From an uncultured Bacilli bacterium (GTDB taxonomy: Bacteria > Bacillota_I > Bacilli_A > RF39 > UBA660), in NCBI GenBank assembly GCA_944372025.1, contig CALVYE010000003.1:1-34427 (forward strand): a DNA stretch of 34,427 nucleotides. Direction: 5' to 3'. The stretch's first letter is position 1; each line of letters begins with the position of its first letter. The translations under genes and the position numbers were made by a program. Under the pieces are notes generated by a model that saw nothing but the letters and a program-made list of their open reading frames with translations, did no database searches and was not told the origin of the DNA. This document shows positions 5,376-34,427 of the stretch, piece after piece.

Positions 5376-6095
5376 CTATTTTTTTTCTTTCAAAAGTAGT
5401 GTTGGCAAGTAGGCAATTAATACTGACAAAAATCCAGCCATTTCTAGCCAAAATATTGGATAATTAAAATCTTTTATAAATGGAAACATCTCAATTATAA
5501 AATCGGGTAATTTATCTGTCATAATATAATTTGTCTTAAAAAATATATTAAAAATAAAAACAATTATAAAAACAATATTTGCATAAATCATAGAAAGGAA
5601 CATATCTTTTTTATTTACTTTCCAATCTAAAACAAAGAGACAATACATACTACAAATTATAAAAAATAAATGACTGATATACCATTGCCAAAACATAAAT
5701 CTATCAGGACCTACAATTAAATCAGGAAAAACAATTGCTGGTAATGGACCAGCAAAACTGAAAAAATAAATGATTTTAAACCATTTTTTCTTATTAGTAT
5801 ATAATATGTACATAAACAAAAAACCACTAATAAAACAAAAATGTAAAGGCAAATGATATTTATAGCTATAAGTTCCCATTATTATTTCTGATATATAATA
5901 TATAAGCATATTTAAAAGCATTATACTCGCCATTAAATATCTCATAAATTTATCATGATATTTCAATTTTTTAATTTTATTACGAGCGATGTATATTAAG
6001 ATAATAATAATTAAAGATAAAATAATGCTTAATAAATGAATTAGTCCATAATTTTCAAAAACAAAAATACCAGGTAGCTTAGAAAAAAATTTCAT
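5376..6095 (-). CDS. YwaF/TIGR02206-type integral membrane protein
   Basis: A 239-aa membrane protein with about seven hydrophobic segments. It carries the motifs typical of the YwaF (TIGR02206, TMEM164-related) family: LPLHFCFISGF near residue 80 and FWQWYISHLFFI near residue 135, with conserved histidines in or near the membrane. The biochemical function of the bacterial family is not known to me. It starts 8 bp after the ychF stop. Only a weak ribosome-binding site is visible (TTTAAAGTATAAT), so translation may be coupled to ychF. It is the last gene before a strong terminator. Family call is fairly confident; function is unknown. Confidence 0.75.
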   Translation of the reverse strand: MKFFSKLPGIFVFENYGLIHLLSIILSLIIIILIYIARNKIKKLKYHDKFMRYLMASIMLLNMLIYYISEIIMGTYSYKYHLPLHFCFISGFLFMYILYTNKKKWFKIIYFFSFAGPLPAIVFPDLIVGPDRFMFWQWYISHLFFIICSMYCLFVLDWKVNKKDMFLSMIYANIVFIIVFIFNIFFKTNYIMTDKLPDFIIEMFPFIKDFNYPIFWLEMAGFLSVLIAYLPTLLLKEKK

Positions 6096-6103
6096 ATTAT
6101 ACT

Positions 6104-7204
6104 TTAAACATTAAATCTAAAATAGCAAATATCCCCATCTTGCATTACATATTCTTTTCCTTCAAGTCGCATTTTTCCTTTTTCTTTAACTATTTTTTCG
6201 CTTCCACATTCGATTAAATCATCATAGCTCATTACTTCAGCCTTTATAAAACCTCTTTGAAAATCAGAATGTATTATTCCTGCACACTCTGGAGCTTTCA
6301 TTCCACGTTTAAATGTCCATGCTCTCACTTCTTTTTCGCCAGCTGTAAAGAAAGTTGCTAAACCTAGTAAATGATAAGTTGCATTTATTAGTTTGTCTAA
6401 ACCACTTTGATTAATTCCAAGTTCTTCTAGAAATAATGCTTTTTCATCATCAGGTAATTCGCTTAATTCAGACTCAACTTTCGCACATAAAATGACAACT
6501 TCTGCATTTTCTTTTTTAGCATATTCTTTTACTATTTCAACATATTTATTTTCCCTAAAACTAATTTCTGATTCTTTTATGTTTGCTACATATATGAAAG
6601 GTTTTAAAGTTATTAAATTGAAAGCTTTAATCATTGCAAGTTCATCAGATGTATACTCTAAAAATCTAGCAGGAATATTTTTATTTAGAGCTTCTTTTAT
6701 TCTTACTAATAAATTATATTCAGCTACTACATCTTTTTCTTTTGTAGTCTTAGCTTTCTTTTCAATACGTAATATTCTATTTTCAATGATATCTAAATCT
6801 GAAATAATAAGTTCTGTATTTATTATTTCAATATCTCTTATAGGATCAATTCCACCCTCCACATGAGTAATATTTTCATCTTCAAAACAACGTACCACTT
6901 CACAAATTGCATCTACTTCACGTATATGTGATAAAAATTTGTTACCTAAACCTTCTCCTGTTGATGCACCTTTTACAAGTCCAGCGATATCCGTAAATTC
7001 AAAAGTAGTAGGTACTAAACTGTCAGGTATATACATTTCATTTAATACATCTAATCGTTTATCTGGAACTGTTACAACTCCAACATTAGGATCAATAGTT
7101 GCGAAGGGATAATTTGCAGCTAAAATATTTTTTTTAGTTATTGCATTAAATAAAGTTGATTTACCAACATTAGGTAAACCAACTATTCCAGCAGTTAAAC
7201 TCAT
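6104..7204 (-). CDS. ychF: Redox-regulated ATPase YchF (Obg-family)
   Basis: An Obg-like P-loop protein that prefers ATP and interacts with ribosomes in stress responses. It is 366 aa. The G1 motif GLPNVGKST is near the N-terminus, with the switch region [14 protein letters not shown] and [10 protein letters not shown] following. The C-terminal TGS domain includes [14 protein letters not shown] and ends in [11 protein letters not shown]. The ATG at 7204, preceded by AAGGAGGT, is the start; longer readings would overlap abgT without a ribosome-binding site. In B. subtilis it also lies between rpsF and the parAB (spo0J-soj) region, so this is conserved context. Confidence 0.96.
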
Positions 7205-7217
7205 AATTCTTACCTCC

Positions 7218-8795
7218 TTATAGTGTAGGATAAACACCTGGTCCAATTGGTAAGCCTATTATATACCAAATAACAATAAGTATCAAGAAAGTTAAAGCAA
7301 ATATTAATGCATAGGGCATCATATAACTAAATGATTTTTTCATAGTGACTACTTCATCATTAGTATTATAAATTTGAAGAAATGCTAAATAAATAACATA
7401 GTATGCTAATAAAGGAGTTAATATATTTATTGGTGAAGCAGCACTTCTATATATAACTTGAACAAATTCAGGTGATATATTTGATTGCATAAATATTGGT
7501 ACAATAGTAGGTGCGATAATCGACCATTTTAAAGTAGGAGAAGTTAATAAGAAACTTCCTAACATTATAATTATAAAGAATAAAATAACTAAAGGTAGTC
7601 CCGTAATATTTAAATCTCTAATCATTTCTATTAAGGAAATATTGATAATTGTACCTATATTTGTCTTTTTAAATATAGCGATAAATTGAGAAGCAAAGAA
7701 AAGTAAGATTATTAAGTATCCAATATTATTTTTAGAAGCTGTTATAAAATCAATTATATCATTATCATTTTTAATAGTTTTAGAACCTAACCCATATGCT
7801 ATTCCTGATATGAATAATATTGCAGAAACAATAACTACTAGTCCTTGTTGAAAATATGAATTAGCTCCTAATAATTGATTTATATAACCTTCACTTGCAG
7901 TATCTAATAGTAATCCTGCACCAGGCAAAGGACAATTTGGAATTATCATATAAATAAATGCTATTAGTAGTACTATGTCAGCAAGTGCAGTAAATAATAA
8001 TCCTCTTTTTTGTCTTCTATCTAAGATTTGAATTTCATCTATGTCATCTTTTTTATTAGGTAATTTAGGTAAAATAATTTTTTCAGTTATTATAGTGCCT
8101 ATTATTGAGATAATTATAGTAGCAATTAAGATGTAAAAAATATTTCCAAAAAGAGGTACGTTGTACTTAGAGTCAAGAATTTGAGCTCCTGCATTTGTAT
8201 ATAAAGCCAATGAAGTATCAAATGAACTAACAAATGCACTTACTCCATATCCGCCAGCTACACCAGCAAAGGCTGCAACAATTCCTGCAATAGGATTTCG
8301 TTTTTGCAACGAAAAAATAATCGCACCTAAAGGAATTAAGAAAACATATCCTAAATCGGTAAATAAAGATGATATAACGCCCAATAAAACAAGTATGAAT
8401 GTAAATACCCATTTTGGAGATGTTTCTTTTCTAATTAGTGATAGAGCTTTAAAAAGTCCTGATTTTTCTGCTACTGTTACACCAATAAAAGCAATTAGTA
8501 TCATACCAAGAGGCGCAAATGAAACAAAGTTAGAAACAAAATTACTTATTATATATTGTAACCCTTTAGTATTTAATAAAGATTCAACCTCTATTACTTG
8601 TGTTTCCAATTTTCCTGTTACCGAATTAAGTGAACTATAACTTCCTTGTGATAACCAAGAAAAAGGATATTTATTGTTAATTTCTATTTTTCCTAAAAAG
8701 CTTAAAACCGCACTTAAAATAATTGTACCGACTATTAAAATAATAAAGACAGTTATAGGACTAAGTGTTTTTTTCTTTTTGTTTTTTCTTGCCAT
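7218..8795 (-). CDS. AbgT-family transporter
   Basis: A 525-aa polytopic membrane protein with a Lys-rich N-terminal cytosolic tail and about 11-13 membrane segments. It matches the AbgT family, whose founder takes up p-aminobenzoyl-glutamate; other members are proposed to export sulfonamides by proton antiport. Supporting motifs are NFVSFAPLGMILIAFIGVTVAEKSG near residue 90 (with the conserved VAEKSGL), AGVAGGYGVSAFVSSFDTSLA near 180, and a C-terminal half with LLTSPTLKWSIIAPTIVPIFM. The ATG follows GGAGGAATTTTAATA, and the gene begins 2 bp after DUF951. It is not part of the B. subtilis block, so it looks inserted between the DUF951 gene and ychF. The substrate is not determinable here. Confidence 0.85.
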   Translation of the reverse strand: MARKNKKKKTLSPITVFIILIVGTIILSAVLSFLGKIEINNKYPFSWLSQGSYSSLNSVTGKLETQVIEVESLLNTKGLQYIISNFVSNFVSFAPLGMILIAFIGVTVAEKSGLFKALSLIRKETSPKWVFTFILVLLGVISSLFTDLGYVFLIPLGAIIFSLQKRNPIAGIVAAFAGVAGGYGVSAFVSSFDTSLALYTNAGAQILDSKYNVPLFGNIFYILIATIIISIIGTIITEKIILPKLPNKKDDIDEIQILDRRQKRGLLFTALADIVLLIAFIYMIIPNCPLPGAGLLLDTASEGYINQLLGANSYFQQGLVVIVSAILFISGIAYGLGSKTIKNDNDIIDFITASKNNIGYLIILLFFASQFIAIFKKTNIGTIINISLIEMIRDLNITGLPLVILFFIIIMLGSFLLTSPTLKWSIIAPTIVPIFMQSNISPEFVQVIYRSAASPINILTPLLAYYVIYLAFLQIYNTNDEVVTMKKSFSYMMPYALIFALTFLILIVIWYIIGLPIGPGVYPTL

Positions 8796-9791: not shown

Positions 9792-10676
9792 CTAATCTAC
9801 TTTAATATTTAAAATTTCCAAAATTCTGTCTAAATCTCTCGCAGAATCAAAAGATATTTCTATTTTTCTGTCTGTTATTTTAACTTTTGTACCCAATTTA
9901 TCTTTTAAGATTTCTTCTACATATATGTATGGTCGATTCGTTTTCTTTTTCAAAGTACTTATAGGACTTGATTTAGTGTACTTTTCTTCATTTGTTAGTT
10001 CTTCTAGCTGTCTCACACTCAAATCCTCGTCTACTATTTTGTTTGCTAAAATTTCTACTTGTTCAGGATTTTCTAATTTACTAAGAACTCTTGCATGTCC
10101 CATAGAAATCTTTTTGCTATTAATCATTTGTTTAACATTATTTGGTAATCTAAGTAGTCCTAACATATTAGTTACATGACTTCTACTTTTACCTATTCTT
10201 TTGGCAAGCTCATCTTGAGTTATATTTAAAGCATTTATTATATCTCTATATGCTTTAGCTTCTTCAATTGAAGTTAAATCTTCTCTCTGAAGATTTTCTA
10301 ACAGTGCGATTTGCATCATATCTTCATCTGAGAAATCTTTAACAATTGCAGGTATAGTTTCTAATCCAGCCTTAATACTAGCTTTTACTCTTCTTTCTCC
10401 TGCGATAATATCATAACCTTTAATACTTTTTTTAACTATTATTGGTTGAAATACTCCATGTTCTTTAATTGAAGCGGCTAATTCATCTAAAGCTGTTTCA
10501 TCAAAGTAAGTTCTTGGTTGATATGGATTACTTCTAAGTTCTGATAATTTAACCTCAATTATTTCATCTTTAGAAGCATTTTCTAATATTTTGTCTTCAA
10601 CCTGTGAAAAATCTAAAATCTCATTATTGAATAGCTGTTCTAATCCTTTACCTAGTGCTCTACGCTTTTGTTCCAT
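9792..10676 (-). CDS. parB: Chromosome partitioning protein ParB (Spo0J)
   Basis: CTP-dependent DNA clamp that loads at parS and spreads, recruiting ParA and SMC. It is 294 aa. The N-terminal domain has LRSNPYQPRTYF, the CTP-binding motif GERR (in YDIIAGERRVKA) and ENLQREDL. The parS-reading helix-turn-helix (LTQ..LAKRIGKSRSHVTNMLGLLRLP) follows. A C-terminal dimerisation domain ends the protein. Two perfect parS sites are present at the right edge of this window. A TTG nine bases further up (10685) sits too close to the GGAGG, so the ATG is preferred. It overlaps the end of parA by 17 bp. Confidence 0.97.
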   Translation of the reverse strand: MEQKRRALGKGLEQLFNNEILDFSQVEDKILENASKDEIIEVKLSELRSNPYQPRTYFDETALDELAASIKEHGVFQPIIVKKSIKGYDIIAGERRVKASIKAGLETIPAIVKDFSDEDMMQIALLENLQREDLTSIEEAKAYRDIINALNITQDELAKRIGKSRSHVTNMLGLLRLPNNVKQMINSKKISMGHARVLSKLENPEQVEILANKIVDEDLSVRQLEELTNEEKYTKSSPISTLKKKTNRPYIYVEEILKDKLGTKVKITDRKIEISFDSARDLDRILEILNIKVD

Positions 10677-11451
10677 TTCTTTCAATGACCTCCTTAGCTA
10701 GATTAATATAGGCTTCAGTTCCTCTACTTTTAGGATCGTAAGCAAGTATCGGTTTACCATGTGAAGGCGCTTCTGTAAGTCTTATTAATCTAGGTATTAT
10801 TGTATCGTATACTCTTTCTTTAAAATAACTCCTAATATCTTCTACTACTTCAAGTCCTAAATTTGTTCTAGAATCTAACATAGTAAGAAGAACACCCTCA
10901 ATATCTAAATTAGGATTTAAGTTGCGTTGTGCTAACATAATACTGTTAAGTAATTGCATAATTCCTTCAAGTGCAAAAAATTCACATTGAACAGGAATAA
11001 TAACTGAATCACTAGCAGTTAAAGCATTTGTTGTTAAAATTCCTAATGAAGGTGGACAATCAATCAAAATAAAATCATAATTATCACGAATATCATTTAA
11101 TTTTGATTTTAATTGTTCCCCTTTAGAAAATCCTGTTTGATAACGGCTTTTTTCAATTAGTTCAATATCTACTCCTGCTAGATTAATTGTTGCAGGTACT
11201 ATATGTAAGTTTTTAAATTTAGTCTTTACAATTACATCTTGCATATTTGATTTTCCAATTAAAACATCGTAGATACTTTTATCTATATCTCCTTTATTTA
11301 TTCCTACTCCAGTTGTTGTATTACCTTGAGGATCTAAATCTATTAGTAACACTTTTTTGCCTAGATAACCTAATGATGCTGATAAATTAATACTCGTCGT
11401 TGTTTTTCCTACTCCACCCTTTTGATTTACCATTGATATAACTTTACCCAT
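10660..11451 (-). CDS. parA: Chromosome partitioning ATPase ParA (Soj)
   Basis: Deviant Walker A ATPase that forms dynamic DNA-bound dimers and, with ParB, organises the origin region and regulates DnaA. It is 263 aa, the short chromosomal (Soj) type without an N-terminal helix-turn-helix. KGGVGKTTTSINL lies at residues 11-23, the Walker B-type DPQGNTTTG follows, and then YDFILIDCPPSLG. The start ATG has an AGAGGTG site. It is first in the parA-parB-mscS-DUF951-abgT-ychF-ywaF run and has its own promoter just after the ftsH terminator. The neighbours gidB and noc, usual partners in B. subtilis, are absent here. Confidence 0.97.
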   Translation of the reverse strand: MGKVISMVNQKGGVGKTTTSINLSASLGYLGKKVLLIDLDPQGNTTTGVGINKGDIDKSIYDVLIGKSNMQDVIVKTKFKNLHIVPATINLAGVDIELIEKSRYQTGFSKGEQLKSKLNDIRDNYDFILIDCPPSLGILTTNALTASDSVIIPVQCEFFALEGIMQLLNSIMLAQRNLNPNLDIEGVLLTMLDSRTNLGLEVVEDIRSYFKERVYDTIIPRLIRLTEAPSHGKPILAYDPKSRGTEAYINLAKEVIERNGTKA

Positions 11452-22790: not shown

Positions 22791-23004
22791 TAAAAAATAG
22801 ATTCATCCTTATAAGGACGAATCTATCGCGGTACCACCTTAATTTATAATAATAATAATAATTATACACTCAAATATTTAACGCATAATTTACGATTTTA
22901 CTCCAGAGCCATCTTCCATAATTGTATAACATCTATTTTCAGCATACCTAGACTCTCTAAAGAAATAACAATTATGTACTCTTTCCTTCATAGCAAAATA
23001 AATA
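22791..23004 (-). promoter_or_regulatory. T-box riboswitch, methionine (AUG) specifier
   Basis: The conserved T-box AAGGTGGTACCGCG lies at 22840-22827, followed by a terminator hairpin (22826-22797: ATAGATTCGTCC pairing with GGATGAATCTAT) and six T. In Stem I, AGAG-TA on the 5' side pairs with CTCT (22908-22905), and CATAATTG pairs with CAATTATG above the specifier loop. The loop contains AUG at 22912-22910 followed by G, so the cognate tRNA is tRNA-Met. Uncharged tRNA-Met would favour the antiterminator and read-through into dut-metG. Confidence 0.95.
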
Positions 23005-31995: not shown

Positions 31996-33660
31996 TTATA
32001 TAACTTGAACTAAACTTTCTCCAAAGATATCAATTGCTTGTTCAACAATAAAATTGTTTTCCACGTTGAATATTTTTTCATATTCGATATCTTCATTTAT
32101 AAAATTATATTCAATTTTGTTTTTTATATTTTTTATATATTCTTTTTTTGTTTTTTCCCATGTATATTGATCTAATGCTACAAAATTATATTCTTTTTCG
32201 AAAACTTTTGATAATAATTTTTCAATAGTAGGTATATCTTTATTTGCTCTTTCTGACATTGAAGTATATGGATATGTAACAATTATATTTTTATCAGATG
32301 CAGCAACAACTTCACCATCTAAAAGAATTCCTGGTGCCATTCCGTATATAGTACTAACAGCATATTCTCTTATTTTCGGCCAATTTTGTTTTAAAGTATT
32401 TAAAGATATTTTATTACAAGTTGCAAATGTATTGTTTATTCTAATATTTATTAATTCATCTATATTATCAATTTTTTTTGTTTCAGTTAATTTTTCAGAG
32501 TTCTTTATATTATCATTCTTTTCTATTATAGATTCTGTATTTATTTTAATTTTTTCTTCATTTTTAATATGCGGTATATTTACTATTTCATCTTCTTGTT
32601 TTTCAATAGTATCTTCAATTTTTTCATGTACATAACTTTCATTATCTTGATTAGTAACAATTATAAATGTTTCGAGTAAAATCTTTGGATAGTTAGTTTG
32701 TTTCATTTTAGTTGATAGTTCATTTAAATCGTTTATATATTTTAGTATTTTTGTTCTATCATAATTATTTTCAATTTTATTTAGTAATATATCTCTCAAA
32801 TAAATCATTAATTCATCAATAATTTTAAATAAATCGATACCTCTGTCATTTATTTCATTTATATAATTAATATATTTATCAATCTCATTATTGTATAATA
32901 AGTTGAACAATTTTTTTATTTCATTTTTTGTTAACGAATAATTAACAAAATGAATAATTTCAGGTGTAATTTTATCATTTGTAAATGCAATTACTTTATC
33001 TAATAGTCCTATTGCATCTCGCAATCCACCATCTGTCAAAGTACTAATTTCTTTTATTGCATCATCAGTTATATTTATATTTTCTTTTTGGGCAATATAT
33101 TTAATTCTTTCAAATATTTTATTTTCAGAAATTCTATTAAAATCAAATCTTTGACATCTCGATATTATTGTAATAGGTATTTTATTCACTTCCGTAGTTG
33201 CCAAAATAAAAATAACATGTTTTGGTGGTTCTTCAAGTGTTTTTAACAATGCATTAAATGCACCAATTGAAAGCATGTGAACTTCATCTATAATGTAAAT
33301 TTTATATTTAGAAGAAGCAGGCAATAAATTAGCTTTATTTCGTAATTCTCTAATTTCATCAACACCATTATTAGATGCAGCATCTATTTCTATAATATCG
33401 ATATAATTTTTATTGTTAAATTGAATACAGGATTCACATTTATCACATGGGACACCGTTATTTTGATTATCACAATTTATCAATTTTGCTATTAGTTTAG
33501 CAATACTTGTTTTACCTGTTCCACGTGGTCCGCAAAAAAGATATGCATGAGATATTTTTCTATTATTTATTTCATTAATAATTATTTTTTTTATAATATC
33601 TTGTCCTACAATTTCATCAAATGACTTTGGACGATATTTTCTATATAAAGCTTGATACAT
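31996..33660 (-). CDS. dnaX: DNA polymerase III tau/gamma subunit
   Basis: Clamp-loader ATPase that links the loader to the polymerases. It is 554 aa. Walker A GPRGTGKT lies at residues 44-51, zinc Cys at 63, 72, 75 and 78, and YIIDEVHMLS is the Walker B box. ISRCQRFDF gives the SRC motif, and GGLRDAIGLLDK follows. The C-terminal half is a low-complexity Lys/Glu/Ile-rich linker (about 370-425) and a tau-like domain. No programmed frameshift site stands out, so only a full-length product is predicted. GTG at 33672 overlaps the GGGGTGA ribosome-binding site, so the ATG at 33660 is preferred. Confidence 0.96.
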   Translation of the reverse strand: MYQALYRKYRPKSFDEIVGQDIIKKIIINEINNRKISHAYLFCGPRGTGKTSIAKLIAKLINCDNQNNGVPCDKCESCIQFNNKNYIDIIEIDAASNNGVDEIRELRNKANLLPASSKYKIYIIDEVHMLSIGAFNALLKTLEEPPKHVIFILATTEVNKIPITIISRCQRFDFNRISENKIFERIKYIAQKENINITDDAIKEISTLTDGGLRDAIGLLDKVIAFTNDKITPEIIHFVNYSLTKNEIKKLFNLLYNNEIDKYINYINEINDRGIDLFKIIDELMIYLRDILLNKIENNYDRTKILKYINDLNELSTKMKQTNYPKILLETFIIVTNQDNESYVHEKIEDTIEKQEDEIVNIPHIKNEEKIKINTESIIEKNDNIKNSEKLTETKKIDNIDELINIRINNTFATCNKISLNTLKQNWPKIREYAVSTIYGMAPGILLDGEVVAASDKNIIVTYPYTSMSERANKDIPTIEKLLSKVFEKEYNFVALDQYTWEKTKKEYIKNIKNKIEYNFINEDIEYEKIFNVENNFIVEQAIDIFGESLVQVI

Positions 33661-33694
33661 TAAATTATTCACCCCTATCTTGATGTATAGATTT

Positions 33695-33703
33695 ATTATA
33701 ACA
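33695..33703 (-). promoter_or_regulatory. Extended -10 promoter of dnaX
   Basis: TGT-TATAAT on the minus strand (33703-33695), with no good -35. The -10 overlaps the tadA stop codon (33698-33696), so the dnaX operon probably has its own start just after tadA. Confidence 0.45.
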
Positions 33704-34157
33704 CGTTATGGATTATTTTGCGTGATTTTTTTCTTCTTTGCTGAAAAAAATCACGCAAAATAATCAAGTATTGATTTTCTGCTTTTTCATCATTAATTTT
33801 TGATTTTTTTATATTTTTTAATCCAATTTTATTCTTGTATTTTTCTTTTTCATTATCCACTAAATAATACACATTTTCTATTCTTGCTTCATTTATTATT
33901 GTTCTACACATTTCACAAGGATTCATGGTAACATATAGCGAACACCCATTTAAATTCCATGATTTTATTTTTTTTGTAGCCTTTCTTATTGCAATTATCT
34001 CAGCATGATCAAGAGGATTATGAGTTTTTTCCTTTTTATTGTATCCCCTAGATATTATTTTTGTATTTTTAACTATAATTGCACCAACGGGAACACTACC
34101 TTCTTTAATAGCCTTTTGACTCAATTTTAATATTTCTTTAATATATTGATTTTTCAT
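33696..34157 (-). CDS. tadA: tRNA-specific adenosine deaminase
   Basis: Converts A34 to inosine in tRNA-Arg(ACG), essential for wobble decoding. It is 153 aa. The cytidine-deaminase-fold zinc motif is HAEI (His51, Glu53 as the proton shuttle) with MNPCEMC (Cys81, Cys84). LDHAEIIAIRKA and SVPVGAIIV are also typical. The ATG at 34157 follows GGAGTGGTTAT; earlier in-frame starts would lie inside the SRP RNA gene. The last 20 or so codons are written by one half and the loop of a 55-nt perfect inverted repeat (33711-33765). In B. subtilis tadA also sits next to the SRP RNA gene and dnaX. Confidence 0.96.
   Translation of the reverse strand: MKNQYIKEILKLSQKAIKEGSVPVGAIIVKNTKIISRGYNKKEKTHNPLDHAEIIAIRKATKKIKSWNLNGCSLYVTMNPCEMCRTIINEARIENVYYLVDNEKEKYKNKIGLKNIKKSKINDEKAENQYLIILRDFFQQRRKKSRKIIHNVL
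33711..33765. repeat. Perfect 23-bp inverted repeat in the tadA 3' end
   Basis: Arms 33711-33733 and 33743-33765 are perfect complements (each includes TTTTGCGTGATTTTTTTC or its complement) with a 9-nt loop. It lies inside the coding sequence for the C-terminal 18 or so residues of TadA. No T-tract follows on the minus strand, so it does not look like a standard terminator. No second copy was seen in the window. Confidence 0.85.
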
Positions 34158-34170
34158 ATAACCACTCCAT

Positions 34171-34248
34171 AAAAAAAGCACACACAAATGGAGGTTATTA
34201 AGGCTGCTATTTTCCAATCCTGACCTATTTCTAACACATTTGTTGTGC
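34171..34248 (-). ncRNA. ffs: Signal recognition particle RNA (small bacterial type)
   Basis: 4.5S-like RNA that binds Ffh and targets membrane proteins. The domain IV signature is intact on the minus strand: AGGTCAGG, ATT, a GGAA tetraloop, AAT, then AGCAGCCT (34227-34200). A terminal stem GCACAACAAATG (34248-34237) pairs with CATTTGTGTGTGC (34190-34178, one bulge) and runs into seven T, so the closing helix doubles as the terminator. The RNA is only about 71-78 nt, near the mollicute minimum, and lacks an Alu domain. It lies just upstream of tadA, as scr does near dnaX in B. subtilis. Confidence 0.93.
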
Positions 34249-34254
34249 AAATCA

Positions 34255-34284: not shown

Positions 34285-34325
34285 GTTTTTTTACTCTTCT
34301 ATCTTCTTTTTCTTCTCTTTCTCTA

Positions 34326-34341
34326 TGTTTCACGTGAAACA
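34326..34341. other. parS site 1
   Basis: TGTTTCACGTGAAACA, a perfect 16-bp palindrome identical to the B. subtilis parS consensus, the loading site for ParB. The cognate parAB genes are in this window at 9.8-11.5 kb. Confidence 0.93.
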
Positions 34342-34379
34342 TTGTTTTTGTTCTATCTTCTTTTTCTTCTCTTTCTCTA

Positions 34380-34395
34380 TGTTTCACGTGAAACA
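34380..34395. other. parS site 2
   Basis: A second perfect copy of the same palindrome, exactly 54 bp from site 1 and in the same repeat register. Confidence 0.93.
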
Positions 34396-34427
34396 TTGTT
34401 TTTGTTCTATCTTCTTTTTCTTCTCTT

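What the first reader, a model, noticed from the sequence alone, without database searches (positions are those of the whole stretch)
34297..34427. Head-to-tail tandem array of perfect parS centromere sites
Seen: two identical 54-bp units, each with a perfect parS, and the start of a third at the window edge. Known: chromosomal parS sites in B. subtilis and relatives are usually solitary and kilobases apart; tight tandem centromeres are more like plasmid partition loci. Inference: a concentrated ParB-loading and SMC-loading platform close to the origin, and a marker of where the origin lies (to the right). The 54-bp spacing (about five helical turns) would put all sites on the same DNA face.
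Basis: partly seen in the sequence, partly recalled or inferred. Interest (0 to 1): 0.75.

Follow-up and report, generated by a model that had tools for sequence, protein, structure and literature searches.

The report
Satellite-like tandem parS centromere beside gyrA
The end of this contig is part of a head-to-tail array of chromosome-segregation sites (parS) next to the replication origin of an uncultured gut-type bacterium; its whole bacterial family keeps its parS sites in this one gap, often as fast-evolving tandem repeats mixed with binding sites of the related protein Noc, giving a bacterial chromosome a compact, repeat-built centromere.

Summary
In detail: two identical 54-bp units, each with a perfect parS, plus a partial third, end exactly at the contig edge. 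Contig C35 of the same genome opens with the same repeat (two more parS) and continues into gyrA-gyrB-recF-dnaN-dnaA-oriC. The join gives at least 3 parS; the true number is unknown because the assembly broke inside the repeat. No other site in the genome is within one mismatch. Two other species of the genus carry 54-bp parS arrays at the same place, so it is not an artefact. Across 57 genomes of the family the locus is conserved: in the 41 with both flanks held, 109 of 109 exact parS lie around gyrA-tadA-dnaX. Arrays have periods from about 28 to 66 bp and up to 14 units on one contig, and they break the assembly in 21 of 57. In about 25 genomes exact or near-exact Noc sites lie among the parS, sometimes at fixed offset. 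Best reading: the single chromosomal centromere and ParB/SMC-loading platform, built as a small homogenised satellite. The helical-face idea is not supported. Clustered chromosomal parS is known (Myxococcus: 22 in about 3 kb); the short-period homogenised array and Noc-site interleaving appear to be a new variant.

The parts
34297..34427 (.). Tandem array, period 54 bp, 2.4 units, truncated by the contig end; continues on contig C35 (L005:1-77)
34326..34341 (.). parS, perfect palindrome TGTTTCACGTGAAACA (unit 1)
34380..34395 (.). parS, perfect palindrome TGTTTCACGTGAAACA (unit 2)
34342..34379 (.). 38-bp spacer, 89% pyrimidine on this strand; sequence poorly conserved in two congeneric species although their period is also 54 bp
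34172..34254 (-). Bacterial small SRP RNA (RF00169), transcribed away from the array; left border of the centromere gap
33696..34157 (-). tadA-like deaminase (the listed ORF reaches 34250, but the in-frame ATG at 34157 follows a GGAG); left-flank marker in all relatives
31996..33672 (-). dnaX, clamp-loader subunit; left-flank marker
9792..10685 (-). ParB (Spo0J-type), best PDB match B. subtilis Spo0J 6SDK; R/M/R/G at the four parS/NBS specificity positions
10660..11451 (-). ParA (Soj-type) ATPase, overlapping parB

Best explanation
The array is the chromosome's only recognisable parS centromere. ParB dimers (window 9792-10685) bind each parS, close as CTP clamps, slide off and build a partition complex that ParA (10660-11451) moves; the same complex loads SMC, which zips the arms outward from a point about 9 kb from oriC. 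Packing all loading sites into one transcription-free gap between the gyrA terminator and the SRP-RNA gene raises local ParB loading while keeping one SMC entry point. The tandem form arises by replication slippage or unequal recombination that duplicates and homogenises parS-plus-spacer units; selection holds the parS core while the spacer drifts, so period, spacer and number differ between genera. Shown: the sites, their uniqueness in the genome, the locus, the family-wide conservation, the homogenised units, and the ParA, ParB and SMC genes. Inferred: binding, loading, SMC entry, the mode of array turnover and its benefit.
For: Perfect parS in every unit; all exact parS of the genome are in the array and no other site is within 1 mismatch. 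ParA, ParB with parS-type residues (R at 173, G at 201; with PMC7383237) and SMC (981 bits with neighbours) are present. The locus is next to oriC. In 41 family genomes with both flanks held, 109 of 109 exact parS are in the same region. In 36 unbroken loci 124 parS-like sites are in the gyrA-tadA gap, 14 between tadA and dnaX, 3 in dnaX, 1 at the gyrA end. Independent arrays exist: G001 and G002 54 bp, G045 55, G003 42, G031 ten sites at 37-38 bp in an unbroken 297-kb contig, G161 ten at 42 bp, G224 fourteen at 43 bp. parS core variants are homogenised within an array: G035 has nine TGTTACACGTGTAACA. A stable terminator-like hairpin ends gyrA directly beside the last parS.
Against: No binding, ChIP or segregation data exist for this lineage. 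The C3-C35 join is by shared repeat and by synteny with relatives, not by reads. Some relatives do with 2 sites, and G033 has no parS-like site by this pattern, so an array is not obligatory.
Confidence: 0.87

Rival explanations
1. The array is a joint ParB/Noc platform: in this family Noc has been drawn into the origin region, so that the gap is a two-protein origin-organising centre (ParB for ParA/SMC, Noc for origin bridging or replication control) rather than a plain parS centromere.
For: Exact Noc sites (ATTTCCCGGGAAAT) are few per genome and mostly in this region: 68 of 78 in genomes with both flanks held. They interleave with parS at fixed offset in G016 (eight at 44-46 bp), G055 (four at 58 bp), G006 (three at 27 bp), G058 (three at 59-60 bp). 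Noc homologues of the family are long (346-728 aa frames) with Q/R at 173/201, and in those read they start at the CTPase domain without the membrane-targeting helix (PMC8429893).
Against: The window's own array has no Noc site within 2 mismatches; the genome's only one is in oriC. Many family members have none in the gap. The Noc of this genome lacks the permissive lysine at 179 and 184, and a comparable ParB variant without it was non-functional (PMC7383237).
Confidence: 0.3
2. The repeat is an assembly artefact or a neutral slippage product of one parS and its low-complexity spacer, with no function beyond that of a single site.
For: The spacer is low-complexity and 89% pyrimidine, which favours slippage; copy number differs widely between genera; a single parS is enough in P. 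aeruginosa (title of PMC4368675).
Against: Separate assemblies of congeners have the same 54-bp array with diverged spacers; long arrays stand unbroken in large contigs (G031). The parS core stays intact while spacers diverge. Tight pairs occur in 102 of 243 family genomes against 8 of 173 other genomes of the class.
Confidence: 0.12
3. The contig end is a plasmid or integrated-element partition locus rather than the chromosomal centromere.
Against: The flanks are dnaX-tadA-SRP RNA on one side and gyrA-gyrB-recF-dnaN-dnaA on the other; synteny holds across the family; the repeat core is the chromosomal 16-bp parS.
Confidence: 0.01

Closest known systems
Chromosomal parS clusters bound by ParB/Spo0J (B. 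subtilis, Caulobacter, Pseudomonas)
   Same: Identical 16-bp palindrome, origin-proximal, with ParA, ParB and SMC in the genome
   Different: Known sites are non-repetitive and usually kilobases apart (eight over about 0.75 Mb in B. subtilis; 5-40 kb in most bacteria; PMC8357415). Here all lie within one gap of a few hundred bases, with the spacer duplicated too
Myxococcus xanthus 22-parS cluster (PMC3899335)
   Same: Many chromosomal parS packed into about 3 kb near the origin
   Different: About 140 bp per site on average there; here the spacing is as short as about 28-66 bp with near-identical units, at a gyrA-tadA gap, and it is a family-wide trait
Noc/NBS nucleoid occlusion (B. subtilis, S. 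aureus)
   Same: Same 14-bp Noc-site core; Noc homologue beside rsmG; S. aureus also has an enrichment peak at dnaA (PMC5540599)
   Different: In B. subtilis and S. aureus the sites are scattered over the origin-proximal chromosome (41 in S. aureus). Here 0-8 exact sites are usual, mostly within about 10 kb of parS, sometimes in register with parS; Noc has a long linker and no N-terminal membrane helix
Plasmid iterated centromeres
   Same: Head-to-tail short-period binding sites
   Different: Chromosomal 16-bp parS and Spo0J-type ParB, at a core-gene locus

Membership tests
Chromosomal ParABS centromere (parS) | 16-bp palindrome TGTTTCACGTGAAACA | tested here: met
   Two perfect copies in the window and two on C35
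Chromosomal ParABS centromere (parS) | Close to the replication origin | tested here: met
   gyrA to dnaA and oriC on C35 directly after the array
Chromosomal ParABS centromere (parS) | Cognate ParA and ParB with parS-type specificity residues | tested here: met
   Window 9792-11451; GKSR at 170-173 and G at 201 aligned to Spo0J 6SDK; residue roles from PMC7383237
Chromosomal ParABS centromere (parS) | ParB binding and CTP-dependent spreading in vivo or in vitro | not testable with these tools
   Needs ChIP or purified protein
SMC loading site | SMC complex encoded | tested here: met
   SMC on C59, 981 bits with neighbours; ScpA and ScpB not searched
SMC loading site | SMC enrichment or arm alignment starting at the site | not testable with these tools
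   Needs ChIP-seq or Hi-C
Noc/NBS system in the same array | NBS within the array of this genome | tested here: not met
   None in the window within 2 mismatches; the only copy is in oriC
Noc/NBS system in the same array | NBS within parS arrays of family relatives | tested here: met
   G006, G015, G016, G055, G058 and others
Noc/NBS system in the same array | N-terminal membrane-targeting helix of Noc | tested here: not met
   This genome's protein starts MMEQIQYINVDDIIPNRFQPR with no room upstream in frame (542 aa stop to stop)

The most novel reading that the evidence does not exclude
This bacterial family has a repeat-type centromere: a short-period satellite of parS, with higher-order repeats in at least one species, that is continually rebuilt by slippage or recombination at one conserved gap, evolves in concert with its parS variant, and in many genera has absorbed the sites of a remodelled, membrane-helix-less Noc. 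It would be a prokaryotic parallel to satellite centromeres.
Probability: 0.4. Interest if true: 0.8.

Novelty: new variant of a known kind. Interest (0 to 1): 0.62.

Why it matters
How many ParB-loading sites a chromosome needs, and why they are clustered, is an open question tied to SMC collisions (PMC8357415). A family of more than 100 genera in which one locus has tried site numbers from about 2 to at least 14 and spacings from about 28 to 250 bp is a natural series of experiments on it. It also offers a rapidly turning-over bacterial centromere and a case where parS and Noc sites sit in one array, where the split between the two paralogues can be studied. Practically, it explains why these genomes break beside gyrA in short-read assemblies.

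Tried and rejected
Helical phasing: one short-period value per genome (29 genomes) gives R = 0.24 at 10.5 bp, p about 0.18, and 0.94 after scanning periods; rejected as a family rule. Assembly artefact: rejected because congeners and unbroken contigs carry arrays. Plasmid locus: rejected by synteny. A Noc site in the window: none. Conserved spacer sequence: 20-26 of 38 positions identical between congeners, against 80-83% nucleotide identity of gyrA; only weak signs of common descent. Livny et al. 2007 (parS distribution) was not in the library. Literature searches for chromosomal tandem parS or parS mixed with Noc sites found no description of this arrangement; the library is open-access only.

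Full report
OBSERVATION. The window is the complete contig C3 of a 1.16-Mb genome in 98 contigs. Its last 131 bases are a perfect period-54 repeat (34297-34427) with perfect parS palindromes at 34326-34341 and 34380-34395. The contig stops in the third unit. Contig C35 begins with 77 bases of the same repeat, two more parS, and then unique sequence. The possible C3-C35 overlaps (55, 2 or 1 bases) give 3 or 4 parS. The lengths 77 and 77 + 54 are what a k = 77 assembly graph leaves at a repeat loop, so I read 3 as a minimum; this is inference. All exact parS of the genome are these four copies, and with two mismatches allowed the next sites are all at two mismatches, where the reversed-pattern control also gives matches.

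SURROUNDINGS. Left of the array: SRP RNA (34172-34254, minus), a tadA-like deaminase, dnaX and recR. Right of it on C35: gyrA, gyrB, recF, dnaN, dnaA, an A+T-rich region with DnaA-box-like sequences, then rnpA and yidC. gyrA is transcribed towards the array and ends in a 14-bp hairpin with a T-run touching the last parS (z = -4.9); SRP RNA and dnaX are transcribed away from it. The array thus fills the quiet gap between two co-directional units, about 7.4 kb from dnaA. The window also holds parA-parB (9792-11451), which in B. subtilis (own knowledge) lie beside rsmG; here only a second ParB-family gene, a Noc homologue, is beside rsmG-mnmG-mnmE on C12. SMC is present.

RELATED GENOMES. Of 98 relatives searched, 51 have exact parS. 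I read the gyrA region of 57 family genomes. Two congeners show the same 54-bp period (G001 four sites, G002 three), both cut by contig ends, with spacers only 20-26/38 identical. Other periods: 55 (G045), 42 (G003), 43 (G007), 62-63 (G015), 62-65 with eight sites (G038), 66 (G006), 34 (G014, G047), about 28 (G004, read), 37-38 with ten sites (G031), 42 with ten sites (G161) and 43 with fourteen sites up to a contig end (G224). In G031 the units alternate in a three-unit pattern (37, 38, 37), a higher-order repeat. In G035 nine sites are all the variant TGTTACACGTGTAACA, as expected for concerted evolution with ParB. In the 41 genomes with both flanks held, 109 of 109 exact parS are in the region; in the 36 unbroken loci the sites lie almost all between gyrA and dnaX. 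The assembly is broken between gyrA and tadA in 21 of 57, far more often than contig lengths of tens of kilobases would predict, so array lengths are under-counted.

HOW UNUSUAL. Tight pairs (14-mer cores 18-48 bp apart) occur in 102 of 243 family genomes. In a class-wide sample they occur in 8 of 173 genomes outside the family, all in one other small-genome family and mostly about 8 kb from the start of a one-contig genome. Longer arrays were rare in that list: most records hold one pair, and the richest, an uncultured Bacilli MAG (L092), has dnaX, tadA and gyrA flanks as here. Published parS sets are spread over 5-40 kb in most bacteria and 0.75 Mb in B. subtilis (PMC8357415); M. xanthus has 22 in about 3 kb (PMC3899335).

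NOC SITES. Relatives' arrays contain a second palindrome, ATTTCCCGGGAAAT, the core of the B. subtilis/S. aureus Noc site (consensus recalled, its identity in the two species is in PMC5540599). In G016 eight of them precede eight parS-like sites by 44-46 bp; G055, G006 and G058 show other fixed offsets. In genomes with both flanks held 68 of 78 exact copies lie in the fetched region, 14 of them inside dnaX. The present genome has one, in oriC, as do G001, G002 and G045 at the same distance from dnaA. The Noc homologues of the family are long (346-728 aa frames), with the C-terminal profile end matched far downstream in several; they carry Q and R at the Noc-type positions, and those read begin at the CTPase domain, without the membrane-targeting helix seen in sister families (PMC8429893, PMC7383237).

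MECHANISM. Shown: sequence, place, uniqueness, conservation, protein set. Inferred: ParB loads at each parS as a CTP clamp, spreads over the origin region, is moved by ParA and loads SMC. A single cluster gives many loading sites but one SMC entry point, which fits the view that clustering limits SMC collisions (PMC8357415). Spacing does not follow the helix repeat, so the sites need not share a face; this agrees with independent clamp loading rather than a phased assembly. The tandem form is best explained by slippage or unequal recombination with selection on the parS core.

VERDICT. The finding is real and better than stated: a family-wide, repeat-built chromosomal centromere. It belongs to the known ParABS kind; its satellite-like form and the mixing with Noc sites appear undescribed in the papers I could search.

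Noticed in passing
L037:4684-6297 (genome contig C12): Noc homologue of 537 aa with a long Asn/Pro/Gln-rich linker containing near-identical ~41-aa repeats, no N-terminal membrane helix, and T179/D184 where Noc usually has a permissive lysine (Q173 and R201 kept).
   Followed up: partly
L005:9161-9174: The only exact Noc site of the genome lies in oriC between dnaA and rnpA; G001, G002 and G045 have one at the same distance from dnaA.
   Followed up: partly
L212 (G016) about 5840-7920 of the reverse complement: Eight composite elements, Noc site then parS-like site at 44-46 bp, with a conserved A+T-rich linker; all exact parS and Noc sites of that genome are in this gap.
   Followed up: partly
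G024:C1:89140-90102: A separate tandem array of about 12 exact Noc sites with a period near 79 bp, away from the contig that carries that genome's parS.
   Followed up: no
dnaX of at least 12 relatives (e.g. L247, L249, L264): Exact Noc sites inside dnaX, about 280-460 bp from the 3' end of the homologous part; G039 has three parS in dnaX.
   Followed up: no
L222 (G035): Nine copies of an altered parS, TGTTACACGTGTAACA, about 105-185 bp apart; the matching ParB may have changed specificity.
   Followed up: no
window 9792-11451: parA-parB have left their usual place beside rsmG and noc and sit between an mscS-like gene and ftsH-tilS.
   Followed up: partly
window 22810-23000 (-): T-box leader (RF00230, 96.5 bits).
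   Followed up: no
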